Positions 4,098 through 7,097 of a stretch of DNA of 10,823 bases are shown here, one piece after another. Position numbers and translations under genes: made by a program. The DNA comes from Anaerolineae bacterium (GTDB taxonomy: Bacteria; Chloroflexota; Anaerolineae; UBA1429), in the NCBI GenBank assembly GCA_007118555.1, contig SKRJ01000392.1:1-10823 (forward strand). Direction: 5' to 3'. The stretch's first letter is position 1. Each line of letters opens with the position of its first letter. The notes beneath the pieces were generated by a model that worked only from the letters and a program-made list of their open reading frames with translations, made no database searches and had not been told where the DNA came from.

Positions 4098-4427
4098 TCA
4101 GCGGGAACCAGAGCCGCCGCGACGGGGACGGCTGCCCGGCCGCGTATCGGTGCGGGAGCCACGCTGCTGCCGCGAGCTGCTCGGCGGGCGCGAGGGTTTG
4201 TCCTGCCGCGTACTGCGCTGTGAGGCCGGCGTTTCCCTCTTTTCGCGCCGCTCATCCGCCACGCGGCCCCCATCGCCCCAATGGCTGCGGGGCACCTCAT
4301 GGATCACCACCTGCACCGCATGGGCGGGGATGCCCACCTGCACAAAACTCTCGGTGATGCCCCTGATGAGCTGCCGCGCTTGATCCTTGCCAAACTCTTC
4401 CCAGACGCTAACGGTGACAATGGGCAT
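4098..4427 (-). CDS. 4-oxalocrotonate tautomerase-like protein with basic C-terminal tail
   Basis: Residues 1-64 form a tautomerase-superfamily unit: MPIVTVSVWEEF gives the catalytic N-terminal proline (Pro1 after Met removal), then an LIRGITESF helix, the VQVVIHEVP strand and HWGDGG in place of the usual HFGIGG. Family members act as small homo-oligomers on enol/keto substrates. By-eye alignment with Pseudomonas 4-OT puts Phe where Arg11 should be and Gln where Arg39 should be, while the Phe50 position holds Trp. Pro1 is therefore present but both substrate arginines are absent. After residue 64 comes an unusual ~45-residue tail with eleven arginines and many Ser, Pro and Gly, including three GSR repeats. 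It is probably disordered, and standard family members are only about 60-80 residues. The ATG at 4427 has GGGAGC on the minus strand (4440-4435) with a 7-base spacer. It is a single-gene unit converging on the hydrolase gene. Confidence 0.85.
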   Translation of the reverse strand: MPIVTVSVWEEFGKDQARQLIRGITESFVQVGIPAHAVQVVIHEVPRSHWGDGGRVADERREKRETPASQRSTRQDKPSRPPSSSRQQRGSRTDTRPGSRPRRGGSGSR

Positions 4428-4465: not shown

Positions 4466-4494
4466 ATGCTACAGCGCATGACCAAGGGCGTCAA
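4466..4494 (-). promoter_or_regulatory. Sigma70-type promoter for the tautomerase gene
   Basis: On the minus strand TTGACG (4494-4489) and TAGCAT (4471-4466) are separated by 17 bp. The predicted start is near 4459, leaving a leader of about 31 bases before the ATG at 4427. It is back-to-back with the plus-strand promoter at 4560-4588. Confidence 0.55.
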
Positions 4495-4559: not shown

Positions 4560-4588
4560 TTGACAATCTAAGGTATATATGCTAGTAT
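4560..4588 (+). promoter_or_regulatory. Strong sigma70-type promoter of the small-protein unit
   Basis: A perfect TTGACA at 4560-4565 and TAGTAT at 4583-4588 are separated by 17 bp. The bases before the -35 (4541-4558, including TATTTGTTCACTATTTCG) are T-rich like an UP element, and the spacer is AT-rich. The predicted start is near 4595. This is among the best promoter matches in the window, and it drives a region with no large gene. Confidence 0.7.
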
Positions 4589-4594
4589 GCAGGC

Positions 4595-4651
4595 ATGGTA
4601 AGGATAAAGAAGAGGCGCACATTGTTCGCAATGCAGACAACGTTGTCATAA
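4595..4651 (+). other. Possible 18-codon leader reading frame
   Basis: An ATG lies almost exactly at the predicted transcription start. It opens an 18-residue frame, MVRIKKRRTLFAMQTTLS, ending in TAA at 4649-4651, eight bases before the leader hairpin. There is no ribosome binding site, so translation would have to be leaderless. It is listed because its placement directly before a terminator-like hairpin resembles a leader-peptide arrangement. Chance occurrence is quite possible. Confidence 0.2.
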
Positions 4652-4658
4652 GGCAGAG

Positions 4659-4689
4659 AGGCCTCAGGAGAAGCAAATCTGAGGCTTTT
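4659..4689 (+). terminator. Leader hairpin with T-run: attenuator or small-RNA terminator
   Basis: GCCTCAG (4661-4667) pairs perfectly with CTGAGGC (4679-4685). The outer A4659-G4660 can extend the stem against TT, the loop is 11 bases, and TTTT (4686-4689) then CC follows. It lies about 65-95 bases after the predicted start and about 90 bases before the first small-protein gene. It could make a ~95-base RNA or control entry into the genes. GAGGC at 4612-4616 could compete for the left arm, but only by 5 bp. Confidence 0.55.
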
Positions 4690-4779
4690 CCGTTGAGTGA
4701 CACTTCTCCGGTCGACGCAGATCGGGCACATCGCAGATATGCAGACCTTTTGCCAGCGCAATGATCGAGGAGGGACAAC

Positions 4780-4974
4780 ATGGAGAACAACGACATTCTA
4801 GCCCGATTCCACGAGATCAACTACCAGGACTCTTTGCGGAATAGCTCAGCCAACGGCAGCATCCTTCGAGAGGAGGGCTCTCGGATCAACCGACAGGAGT
4901 TGGGGGCTACCGCGTCGGCGAAAAAAAGGGTATGCCAGTACAATCTCTTTCGACGGACATCCCTCTGCAACTAG
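4780..4974 (+). CDS. Small protein A of a tandem pair (64 aa, unknown function)
   Basis: I do not recognise this family. The case for a real gene is a strong ribosome site GAGGAGGG at 4767-4774 five bases before the ATG, the promoter at 4560, and similarity to the next gene. Gapless alignment of the first 39 residues with protein B gives 11 identities (M1, N3, N4, D5, H11, I13, Y15, L19, L29, E32, Q39), with many similar residues. Both proteins also end in V-C-x7-T-x-L-C, here C52 and C63 followed only by Asn. The N-terminal half is polar, charged and probably helical. There is no signal peptide or membrane segment. A run of seven A (4921-4927) encodes the KK before the cysteine region, and a -1 slip there would enter the frame of protein B. 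Possible roles are a peptide precursor with a helical leader and Cys-pair core, a signalling peptide, or a small regulator; none is shown. Confidence 0.6.
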   Translation: MENNDILARFHEINYQDSLRNSSANGSILREEGSRINRQELGATASAKKRVCQYNLFRRTSLCN

Positions 4975-5030
4975 CAGACTGTCTCAAGGACTGGACGGAA
5001 AAAGACCGTAGGCCGGAGGAGGAAAAAGAC

Positions 5031-5249
5031 ATGAGCAATAACGACTTTATCGTCGCTGTCCATATGATCAAGTATGAAGAGCTTTTAGAAGAGACGAACA
5101 ATCGCAGTCATCTGCTCAACGCAGAGATACTTACCGTACGGCAGCAGATGCAACAGGCCATGGCAAGGGCAAGCCAATCGGCCCAGACGGCCGTATGCCG
5201 GGTGGGTGCCCTCAATGGAACACAGCTTTGCCCGGTACCCAGTAGCTGA
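5031..5249 (+). CDS. Small protein B of a tandem pair (72 aa, unknown function)
   Basis: This is the second member of the pair. The ATG at 5031 is chosen over an in-frame ATG at 4932. GGAGGAGG at 5015-5022 sits an ideal 8 bases upstream, the 4932 start would overlap gene A, and the N-terminus from 5031 (MSNNDFIVAVHMIKYEELL) aligns with protein A (MENNDILARFHEINYQDSL). Residues 1-50 are rich in Glu, Gln, Asn and Leu and probably helical. The C-terminus carries C56 and C67 with T64 and L66 (V-C-x7-T-x-L-C) and ends PVPSS. Codon use (TTA, CTT, ATA, AGG) and base composition (24 G/C of 60 at 5041-5100) differ from the GC-rich neighbours, which suggests separate origin. It lies 56 bases after gene A in the same transcription unit and is followed by a strong hairpin at 5302. 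No transporter or modifying enzyme is adjacent, so a peptide-precursor role is only a guess. Confidence 0.65.
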   Translation: MSNNDFIVAVHMIKYEELLEETNNRSHLLNAEILTVRQQMQQAMARASQSAQTAVCRVGALNGTQLCPVPSS

Positions 5250-5301
5250 ACAATACCCAATAGCGTGATATGGGATACTTTTAGACCGCCTTTCCTTGCA
5301 T

Positions 5302-5336
5302 CGAGTCCCACCCGTTAGGGTGGGACTCGCATCTTT
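5302..5336 (+). terminator. Strong terminator hairpin closing the small-protein unit
   Basis: A perfect 12-bp stem, CGAGTCCCACCC at 5302-5313 and GGGTGGGACTCG at 5318-5329, with a GTTA tetraloop is followed by CATCTTTG. It lies 52 bases after the stop of gene B and 35 bases before the 3' end of the converging URO-D gene. It could block both transcripts, although only the plus side has a short T-rich tail. Confidence 0.75.
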
Positions 5337-5364: not shown

Positions 5365-6492
5365 CTACCAGGCTGGGATCAGCCATTGTTTGGGCGCCGT
5401 CCAGCGTCCCACCTGCTGGACCAGATCCTCTGCCTGAGCCTGACTGGCACAGTGTGTATTCAGCAGCAAACCTTCGGGCTCCAGGTGCTCCATGAGCGTC
5501 TCTACCTCGTGCGCCTCGCAATACAGCACCAGTCGCTTGTTGCGGGACTGGATGCGTCGCAACAGGCGGATCCAGGCGCTCATGGGCGGCGCGCCTGCGC
5601 CGGGCACCCACTGGATGCCGTCCAGGTGAGGCAGATCCAGCAAGAGGTCCAGGTGACGGACAGCGTCGGGTCCGTCGAGATGGTAAATGGTGCGCTCGAC
5701 CCAGCGGGTCTGCTGCTCGATGGCAGGCAGGAGCAGCGTCTCGAACATGCGCGGCGAGATCAGGCACGAGACATCGCTCTGCAGGTCGGCCGAGGGGCGA
5801 TCGGACCAGAGCCCCATCCAAGTAAAGTAGCCGCCCACCCACTGATGGATGGTGCCGATGCAGGCCTGGAAATAGCGGTACCAGGCCTCGTTGACCTCAT
5901 CCAGGGCCTGCACCACCGCCTCGGGTTGCTCCAGAAGGTCGATGGCCAGGCGTTGCGGGTCACGCAAGCGCGAGAGGATCTCGGTGGGGCCGTTCAGATC
6001 GGGCAGGCCGACATAGAACCGTCCCGGGGCCCTGCGCGCACCCGCGTCAAGGAGCCGCTGCGCCGTCTGCCACCAGGCGTTGTCAGGATCAAAGCAGAGG
6101 GGCGGACGATCGTTCCAGTCATCGATGATGGGCTCGGCCCAACCGGTGTGGCTCGGCGCGTGGAGCTGGTACGGGCAACCGACAAAGGCCGCCAGGATGG
6201 CCACCATGCGCGTCGCCATGGGAAAGATCACCGGCATGGCCTCACCGCCCCAGTAGGTGATCTCCACGAGGCGCTCCTGACGGGGGATCACCTGGTCCGG
6301 GTCGGTGAACCAGGCCCTGATCTCGTCTTCCGACACCTGGGGGTTCTCGGCGGTGAGGCGGGCATACTCGGCCTCGTGGCCGGTGCGTGGCGCGCGCACG
6401 AGGATAACGGCGCGGTCGACAATCTCGCCCTCCCACCAGGCCTCCATCCGCTGCTGGGCCCGCTCCCCATCCGCCTTGTATGCGAGCTGCAT
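5365..6492 (-). CDS. Uroporphyrinogen decarboxylase (URO-D) superfamily protein
   Basis: A 375-residue TIM-barrel protein of the URO-D/methyltransferase superfamily (MtaA, CmuA and HemE relatives). Family features are FYVGLPDLNGPTEIL (159-173), SDVSCLISPRMFETLLLP (239-256), YHLDGPDAVRHLDLLL (270-285), IQWVPGAG (293-300) and the final NTHCAS (345-350). Corrinoid methyltransferases of this group bind zinc with an H-x-C motif plus a later Cys. Here the first is H271-L-D273, with Asp replacing Cys, and C348 may be the later ligand. The HemE N-terminal substrate arginines are not evident and no heme gene is nearby, so true heme synthesis is unlikely. No corrinoid-binding protein is present either, so the reaction and substrate are unknown. 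On the minus strand AGAGGAGGGG (6506-6497) precedes the ATG at 6492, and a promoter lies at 6546-6575. It is a single-gene unit. Confidence 0.85.
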   Translation of the reverse strand: MQLAYKADGERAQQRMEAWWEGEIVDRAVILVRAPRTGHEAEYARLTAENPQVSEDEIRAWFTDPDQVIPRQERLVEITYWGGEAMPVIFPMATRMVAILAAFVGCPYQLHAPSHTGWAEPIIDDWNDRPPLCFDPDNAWWQTAQRLLDAGARRAPGRFYVGLPDLNGPTEILSRLRDPQRLAIDLLEQPEAVVQALDEVNEAWYRYFQACIGTIHQWVGGYFTWMGLWSDRPSADLQSDVSCLISPRMFETLLLPAIEQQTRWVERTIYHLDGPDAVRHLDLLLDLPHLDGIQWVPGAGAPPMSAWIRLLRRIQSRNKRLVLYCEAHEVETLMEHLEPEGLLLNTHCASQAQAEDLVQQVGRWTAPKQWLIPAW

Positions 6493-6746: not shown

Positions 6747-7097
6747 CTAACGGTACAGCACGAGTCGGGCAATCACCAGCAGGGTCCCTATGGTGAACAG
6801 GGTGCCAAAGATGGTCTTGTTCCTCGTCGACAAACAGGTCGGCAAAAAGATGTCGTCGCCATCCTGCCAGTCCGGCTTGACCCTCTGCGCCACATGCGTG
6901 AGGGGGCAGGCCCAGCCATTCACACTCAGCACCAGTACCTCGACCACAATCAGCCCAATGGAAGCATAGGTCCAAGCACCGATCCTGCCGGTAATGCCCG
7001 AGTACAGAATGTAAAAGACGGCCGCGGCCATCACAGTCCAGATCGCGCTATGGGCAGCCTTTACCACGGTAATGGACGGCATGGCTCTCATGGACAT
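6747..7097 (-). CDS. Small conserved integral membrane protein
   Basis: A 116-residue protein with three predicted membrane helices at about 16-35, 43-62 and 95-115. The 32-residue loop between helices 2 and 3 holds NGWACPLTHVA (60-70), then DGDDIFLP (79-86) and a second cysteine, C88. This layout resembles an unnamed family of short bacterial membrane proteins, but I know of no assigned function. Two cysteines, a histidine and acidic residues in one loop could bind a metal or form a disulfide; that is inference. Two ATGs compete. The one at 7097 has GAGGAAAG immediately upstream, with a very short spacer. The one at 7091, two codons later, has a spacer nearer normal and may be the true start. 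No clear promoter is seen between this gene and the tRNA terminator upstream. Confidence 0.75.
   Translation of the reverse strand: MSMRAMPSITVVKAAHSAIWTVMAAAVFYILYSGITGRIGAWTYASIGLIVVEVLVLSVNGWACPLTHVAQRVKPDWQDGDDIFLPTCLSTRNKTIFGTLFTIGTLLVIARLVLYR

What the first reader, a model, noticed from the sequence alone, without database searches (positions are those of the whole stretch)
4560..5336. Self-contained, lower-GC transcription unit with two paralogous small proteins of unknown family
The region has a near-consensus promoter (4560-4588), a leader hairpin (4659-4689), two small genes with very strong ribosome sites (4780-4974, 5031-5249) and a 12-bp terminator hairpin (5302-5329). The two proteins share 11 of the first 39 residues without gaps and the same cysteine ending, so they look like a tandem duplication. 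Composition and codon use differ sharply from the flanking genes (24 G/C of 60 at 5041-5100 against 46 of 60 at 301-360). I recognise no known family. This is the best candidate in the window for an undescribed system.
Basis: partly seen in the sequence, partly recalled or inferred. Interest (0 to 1): 0.75.

Follow-up and report, generated by a model that had tools for sequence, protein, structure and literature searches.

The report
Undescribed two-cysteine small protein pair
Two tiny neighbouring genes in a bacterium of the Chloroflexota make two related proteins that each carry exactly two cysteines; the genes look real, evolve fast and sit behind an RNA hairpin that resembles a transcription stop sign, but what the proteins do is still unknown.

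Summary
In detail: promoter (4560-4588), leader hairpin (12 pairs, 4656-4690), two genes with strong ribosome sites (4780-4974, 5031-5249) and terminator-like stem (5302-5329). The proteins are paralogues. A same-genus genome keeps the unit in synteny with dN/dS 0.30 and 0.26. Five of 15 genomes of the order, in three genera, hold relatives, each behind TTGACA-N17-TANNNT. Twelve of 12 sequences have exactly two cysteines, spaced C-x10-C near the end. In four of five loci the leader has a terminator-like hairpin with compensatory changes. No Pfam, NCBIfam, PHROG, PADLOC or Rfam family fits what was tested. Lower G+C goes with fast vertical evolution; no sign of a mobile element was found. Best reading: an attenuator-gated operon for helical microproteins ending in a Cys-Cys loop, acting in trans as redox- or metal-responsive adaptors; gating and cysteine chemistry are inferred. 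RiPP precursors are the main rival; no maturation enzyme was seen among 28 neighbours tested. A new, narrow small-protein family, not a proven new system.

The parts
4560..4588 (+). sigma-70 type promoter, TTGACA-17-TAGTAT, extended -10
   Evidence: TTGACA-N17-TANNNT in 5 of 5 related loci, in 0-3 of 2000 shuffles of each upstream region
4644..4702 (+). outer helix of the leader structure (4644-4649 with 4697-4702); a helix of other sequence and shifted register lies at the corresponding place in the same-genus genome
   Evidence: computed folds
4656..4690 (+). leader hairpin, 12 pairs, terminator-like (TTTT at the end of the 3' arm), upstream of the first gene
   Evidence: compensatory changes
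4706..4728 (+). conserved leader block CTCCGGTC...GATCGGGCA, 21 of 23 identical in G001; can fold alone (CCGGTC/GATCGG) or pair with the ribosome site
   Evidence: alternative pairings
4767..4774 (+). ribosome-binding site of ORF1
4780..4974 (+). ORF1, 64 aa, C52-x10-C63
5015..5022 (+). ribosome-binding site of ORF2
5031..5249 (+). ORF2, 72 aa, paralogue of ORF1, C56-x10-C67
5302..5329 (+). intrinsic-terminator-like stem, 12 pairs
   Evidence: a similar stem by eye in G001
4466..4494 (-). promoter-like site of the divergent tautomerase gene (4098-4427), marks the unit's left boundary
   Evidence: (9 of 12 matches)

Best explanation
This is a small, vertically inherited operon of one order of Chloroflexota (class Anaerolineae, from the names of relatives) that makes two paralogous microproteins. 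SHOWN: both frames are conserved and under purifying selection; all 12 sequences compared end in about [VL]-C-x-phi-x-x-[LF]-x-x-[TS]-x-phi-C with no other cysteine; the unit has its own consensus promoter, a terminator-like end and, in four of five loci, a leader hairpin whose pairing is kept through compensatory changes. INFERRED: RNA polymerase starts at a strong housekeeping-type promoter, a share of transcripts stops at the terminator-like leader hairpin, and read-through (plus a second leader segment that can either fold alone or cover the first ribosome site) sets how much protein is made. The proteins are soluble helical adaptors; the two C-terminal cysteines close a loop as a disulfide or bind a metal, so the tail changes shape with redox or metal state. 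Because neighbours differ between genera, they act in trans on a partner encoded elsewhere; the two copies probably form a hetero-pair or divide partners between them.
For: Synteny and conserved unit in G001; dN/dS 0.30 and 0.26; the 11 proteins returned (P0001 is the window's own ORF2) plus ORF1 of the window: 12 of 12 with exactly two Cys as C-x10-C, highest 19-residue hydropathy mean 1.19; 6 of 87 RBS-preceded 55-85-aa ORFs in the loci then held have that pattern and all six are the family; promoters 5 of 5; leader hairpin 0 of 200 shuffles in each of 4 loci; window-G001 12 pairs: 7 same, 1 one-side, 4 double, 0 broken, while 5 of 20000 random placements keep all; four-locus alignment 95.7% of cells paired against 37-60% for slid versions, 6 of 12 pairs with a double change (1 of 500 shuffles reaches that). 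Of 22 further hits of a hairpin model I looked at 11; by eye most look like ordinary gene-end terminators, which fits a terminator-type stem. Mostly helical prediction in two models. Profile links between subgroups: ORF1-ORF2 3e-10, ORF2-G008 7e-5, G014/G011-ORF2 2e-5 (24 columns, C-terminal), G014/G011-G008 4e-7.
Against: No expression data. In the G008 locus (63-nt leader) the script found no hairpin with a T run and stopped there; 196 of 200 shuffles fold at least as well as the piece tried. The U-run is partly inside the stem in the window, so termination may be weak. On the hairpin alignment one measure, further pair types, is reached by 28 of 500 shuffles, and the alignment was trimmed to a structure taken from these sequences. 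Structure models have low pTM (0.37, 0.34); the first has no PDB match. ORF1 versus the G008 group is only E 0.02 over 20 columns. No partner, redox role or metal site is demonstrated; the 3' leader pieces that would cover the ribosome site fold no better than shuffles (z -0.04 and -0.63). 10 of 15 genomes of the order gave no member.
Confidence: 0.4

Rival explanations
1. Precursors of a ribosomally made, modified or cyclised peptide (RiPP or signal peptide): the variable helical N-terminus is a leader, the C-terminal C-x10-C segment the core.
For: Conserved two-Cys C-terminus, variable middle, tandem paralogues, small size. In G014 an ABC transporter ATPase gene and ABC-2 membrane genes stand divergently next to the unit; G011 has the same layout. 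In G008 the gene upstream is an MFS transporter.
Against: No RiPP maturation enzyme family among the Pfam hits of 28 neighbouring proteins tested in the window, L023, L099, L012/L137 and L138 (six of the 28 had no hit at all, and not every neighbouring ORF was tested). No ABC exporter among the neighbours tested in the window and G008; G001 shares the window's neighbours. The N-terminus is also conserved within a subgroup (MENxDILARFHE).
Confidence: 0.15
2. The RNA is the product: the leader hairpin ends a ~100-nt small RNA, and the two ORFs are minor read-through products.
For: Terminator-like stem kept by compensatory change upstream of the genes in four of five loci.
Against: The ORFs are conserved as proteins across three genera; G008 keeps the protein without the hairpin.
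Confidence: 0.12
3. Toxin-antitoxin or other mobile addiction pair.
For: Two small adjacent genes, lower G+C.
Against: The two genes are paralogues of each other; no strongly hydrophobic stretch; no PADLOC or PHROG family below E 0.01 among the members tested (the best, PglX at 0.012 for the G011 protein, covers 57 of 1428 positions); no plasmid, phage or viral match for ORF2; fixed position in two genomes; single-gene form in G008.
Confidence: 0.04
4. Chance ORFs in an intergenic region.
For: Short frames; relatives few.
Against: Frames, ribosome sites and motif kept across three genera; dN/dS below 1 with third-position excess (ORF2 changes by codon position 13/10/30).
Confidence: 0.02

Closest known systems
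Attenuator-controlled leader operons (intrinsic terminator between promoter and first gene), as a general kind
   Same: Terminator-like hairpin between promoter and first ribosome site, stem kept by compensatory changes
   Different: No Rfam family; no antiterminator, ligand site or common leader peptide recognised by eye; controls a small-protein gene of unknown role
Anti-TRAP (AT, rtpA), recalled, no call
   Same: Small cysteine-bearing protein made from an operon with an attenuating leader
   Different: AT has repeated CxxC zinc motifs (recalled); here there is one C-x10-C pair and no CxxC. Resemblance is from memory and only in layout
Unnamed Chloroflexota small proteins with an N-terminal helix motif of the type R-[YWH]-x-[DE]-x-[LI]-[RA]-E-A (L055, L063, L066, L069, L073, L075, L085)
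   Same: G008-type members share the motif as ERYxDLLREAExxRL
   Different: These lack the C-x10-C tail; the link rests on a short helical motif and on per-genome E-values of 0.004-0.08 in searches of 396 and 15 genomes, near the noise
RiPP precursor peptides
   Same: Small, paralogous, cysteine-bearing C-terminus
   Different: No maturation enzyme among the neighbours tested

Membership tests
RiPP precursor peptide | maturation enzyme encoded nearby | tested here: not met
   No RiPP enzyme family among Pfam hits of 28 neighbouring proteins; six had no hit and not all ORFs were tested
RiPP precursor peptide | conserved leader with variable core, or recognition motif | tested here: inconclusive
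   Across subgroups the C-terminal Cys motif is the most conserved part and the middle varies
RiPP precursor peptide | modified, cleaved product | not testable with these tools
   needs mass spectrometry
Attenuator-controlled operon | intrinsic-terminator-like stem in the leader | tested here: met
   4 of 5 loci, 0 of 200 shuffles each; compensatory changes; not met in G008
Attenuator-controlled operon | alternative antiterminator fold | tested here: inconclusive
   None recognised by eye on the folds; no Rfam leader
Attenuator-controlled operon | regulated termination | not testable with these tools
   needs transcription assays
Toxin-antitoxin pair | toxin and antitoxin of known families | tested here: not met
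   genes are paralogues; no PADLOC/PHROG family below 0.01
Anti-TRAP-like zinc protein | CxxC repeat zinc site (recalled) | tested here: not met
   exactly two Cys, spaced x10, in 12 of 12 sequences
Unnamed helix-motif small proteins | N-terminal R-[YWH]-x-[DE]-x-[LI]-[RA]-E-A motif | tested here: inconclusive
   clear in P0005/P0009/P0010, degenerate in the window's ORFs
Any Pfam, NCBIfam, PHROG or PADLOC family | score above cut-off | tested here: not met

The most novel reading that the evidence does not exclude
The operon is a self-contained sensor loop: the Cys-Cys microprotein senses redox or metal state and, in one state, binds its own leader (or the polymerase on it) to release the terminator-like hairpin, so that one microprotein tunes transcription of the pair and of further targets; a protein-plus-leader regulatory module private to this order.
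Probability: 0.07. Interest if true: 0.65.

Novelty: new variant of a known kind. Interest (0 to 1): 0.38.

Why it matters
Small, fast-evolving protein families are easily missed by annotation and by family libraries. Here a motif (C-x10-C at the end), a promoter and a covarying leader hairpin together allow recognition down to about 20-30% identity, and give a concrete, testable case of a possibly leader-controlled microprotein operon in the Chloroflexota. If the cysteine pair proves to be a switch, the family would be a handle on redox or metal regulation there.

Tried and rejected
Riboswitch or known leader RNA: cmscan of the window, of loci L001, L012, L047, L052 and of the first 700 bases of L023 gave no credible match beyond the tRNA (below cut-off only microRNA and snoRNA families, best E 0.2, and whalefall-1, E 4.6).

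Leader element elsewhere: a covariance model of the hairpin (R1) searched in 15 genomes gave, besides the four training places (one of them also on the other strand), 22 hits up to E 1; I looked at 11 and by eye most lie behind gene ends or a tRNA-like stretch; not tested formally. One (G004:C144, E 0.11) has promoter, hairpin, a 20-codon frame and a second stem before a larger gene; not followed further.

Wider range of the family: 396 genomes of the class and 400 of the phylum gave no further certain member. Of the 25 weak class hits that came with loci I translated 21: L054, L058, L074, L076 and L078 show a C-x10-C string without a stop inside it and L061 and L070 one with a stop inside, but none is a short RBS-started ORF ending there, so they were not counted; L054 (G340, E 0.0018) is the closest look-alike, its matched stretch has two stops. 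Of six weak phylum hits I looked at three (L131-L133), and at L126: none has the motif.

The second 47-aa ORF of G014/G011 is not a detectable relative (E 0.34). Mobile or viral origin: no match for ORF2. Fold search: no PDB match for the ORF2 model; profile against PDB sequences, best E 0.13. MAFFT plus RNAalifold on window and G001 put the hairpin's 3' arm out of register; I therefore compared arms by coordinate and on a trimmed alignment, which leans towards the hairpin. Methyltransferase neighbours: G014 and G011 have homocysteine methyltransferase/MTHFR genes some kilobases off; not seen among neighbours tested in the other loci, dropped. Literature: five searches, seen as listings and abstract openings only; no paper was read; one search counted 238 papers with two of its three terms and listed eight, none of them holding 'Anaerolineae'; the one hit for accession prefixes is about the gene ACOX2. 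An earlier count gave a 119-base overlap of the two G001 contigs; the true figure is 108. The G011 member was first seen at E 0.42-0.68 and then picked by its C-x10-C ending; its support is the layout shared with G014. High scores of members that were in the profile are by construction.

Full report
Observation. The promoter is TTGACA-17-TAGTAT with an extended -10. The leader hairpin is 12 pairs at 4656-4690, inside a larger computed fold. ORF1 (64 aa) and ORF2 (72 aa) follow GAGGAGGG and GGAGGAGG. The end stem at 5302-5329 has 12 pairs with a weak T tail. The two proteins are paralogues: 11 of 39 identical as claimed, none of 2000 shuffles reaches the alignment score, and profiles of three sequences each match over 65 columns at E 3e-10. 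The unit is 51.6% G+C against 65.8% for the rest.

Host and neighbours. The window is contig 229 of a 2.6-Mb, 78% complete genome. Names of relatives are Anaerolineae or Chloroflexi MAGs; all 15 genomes held for the order are of one family. The flanks are ordinary: leuB and ilvE type genes, a GNAT acetyltransferase, an alpha/beta hydrolase and a tautomerase on one side; on the other a 375-aa protein without a family hit, a 116-aa protein, tRNA-Asn, a zinc-type dehydrogenase, an FGGY kinase and a protein like glycerol-3-phosphate oxidase.

Same-genus relative. G001 has the unit between the same genes, but its assembly breaks inside ORF2: one contig ends there and another begins there, with 108 shared bases. 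I compared the pieces apart. ORF1 is 48% and ORF2 67% identical in protein while the five flanking proteins compared are 79-94% identical; dN/dS is 0.30 and 0.26 (dS of ORF1, 1.9, is near saturation). G+C of both ORFs is equally low in G001. So the genes are coding, under purifying selection, fast-evolving and, between these two genomes, vertically inherited.

Wider family. A five-row profile found a relative in a different genus, G014 (E 0.0024). Its protein found G008 (E 8.9e-4). G011, same genus as G014, was noticed at E 0.42-0.68 and by its C-x10-C ending and shares the G014 layout. Thus 5 of 15 genomes of the order, in three genera, have it; the other 10 gave nothing below E 0.1, which in so fast-evolving a family is not proof of absence. 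A search of 5.8 billion proteins with a seven-row profile returned 11 proteins up to E 10 out of 436 candidates, all with the motif. Twelve sequences (these 11, P0001 being the window's ORF2, and ORF1 of the window, which differs from P0003 in its last residue) have exactly two cysteines spaced by ten residues, the second at position 62-69, and no strongly hydrophobic stretch. Among 87 RBS-preceded ORFs of 55-85 aa in the loci held then, six have that pattern and all six are family members. Searches of 396 class and 400 phylum genomes gave no further certain member. No Pfam, NCBIfam, PHROG or PADLOC family fits the members tested.

Transcription unit. All five loci have TTGACA-N17-TANNNT beginning 89-228 nt before the first gene; 0-3 of 2000 shuffles of each upstream region do. 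Four of five leaders hold a terminator-like hairpin not matched in 200 shuffles each; in the fifth, G008, with a 63-nt leader, none with a T run was found. Window and G001 keep 12 of 12 pairs with 4 double changes, 1 single and 7 unchanged; random placement of the same number of changes keeps all 12 in 5 of 20000 trials. On the four-locus alignment 95.7% of cells pair and six of 12 pairs show double changes (1 of 500 shuffles reaches six); slid versions pair 37-60% and show 0-2; the number of further pair types is less telling (28 of 500 shuffles reach it). Only four sequences from two genera are involved, and the alignment was trimmed to the hairpin. A model of the hairpin run over 15 genomes recovers the four; of 22 other hits I looked at 11, and by eye most look like gene-end terminators: the stem is of the terminator type. 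Between hairpin and first gene, 21 of 23 bases (4706-4728) are identical in G001; this piece can fold alone or pair with the ribosome site, but the 3' leader pieces fold no better than shuffles, so translational control is only a suggestion.

How it may work. The layout suggests strong initiation, a gate in the leader, efficient translation and a prompt stop. The protein is predicted mostly helical (one helix 3-56 for ORF2, two helices 8-33 and 40-56 for the G008 protein; pLDDT 82 and 73, pTM 0.37 and 0.34), the first cysteine at the end of the last long helix and the second in the tail. I take it as a helical adaptor with a Cys-Cys loop that responds to redox or metal state. No neighbour gene is shared between the genera among those examined, so any target is likely encoded elsewhere. 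Steps shown: coding, selection, paralogy, motif, consensus promoter, covarying hairpin. Steps inferred: termination at the hairpin, read-through control, chemistry of the cysteines, trans partner.

Rivals. A RiPP precursor is the strongest rival because of the conserved cysteine tail and the exporter genes next to the G014 and G011 units, yet no maturation enzyme was seen among 28 neighbours tested. A small-RNA function for the leader, a toxin-antitoxin pair and chance ORFs are less likely for the reasons given in their rows.

Verdict. A real, undescribed, narrow family with a tidy layout; unusual in how far the sequence has drifted under a fixed two-cysteine frame, but not shown to be a new kind of system. 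No paper on it was seen in five searches of the held library, which is a limited library; no paper was read.

Noticed in passing
L055:1492-1707, L063:1432-1647(-), L066:1501-1692, L069:1201-1365(-), L073:1360-1590(-), L075:1477-1758, L085 (-): Recurring unnamed Chloroflexota small proteins (54-93 aa) with an N-terminal R-[YWH]-x-[DE]-x-[LI]-[RA]-E-A type helix and varied C-termini; in L069 a second copy of the kind stands just upstream, both with hydrophobic-looking tails.
   Followed up: partly
window 5365-6492 (-): 375-aa protein, 89% identical in G001, no Pfam, NCBIfam or PDB-sequence match; by eye it resembles uroporphyrinogen-decarboxylase-like methyltransferases (recalled, untested).
   Followed up: partly
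window 6747-7097 (-): 116-aa protein, hydrophobic by eye, no accepted family (weak SMR transporter match, E 0.003, 18 bits against a cut-off of 205); its gene is lower in G+C in G001 (0.46 against 0.58).
   Followed up: no
L114 (G004:C144) 1404-1640: Promoter, terminator-like hairpin, 20-codon frame and a second terminator-like stem, by eye, ahead of a 421-aa frame; may be another attenuated leader.
   Followed up: no
L012:1726-1869 and L047:1702-1845: In G014 and G011 the two-cysteine gene is followed by a 47-aa gene without cysteines, 45% identical between the two and not detectably related to the family by profile.
   Followed up: partly
L012:186-1169 (-), L137:4063-5659 (-), L047:100-1083 (-), L138:9675-10463 (-): ABC transporter ATPase (Pfam-tested in G014 only) and ABC-2 membrane genes divergent from the unit in G014 and G011; possible export link, no such gene among neighbours tested in the window and G008.
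   Followed up: partly
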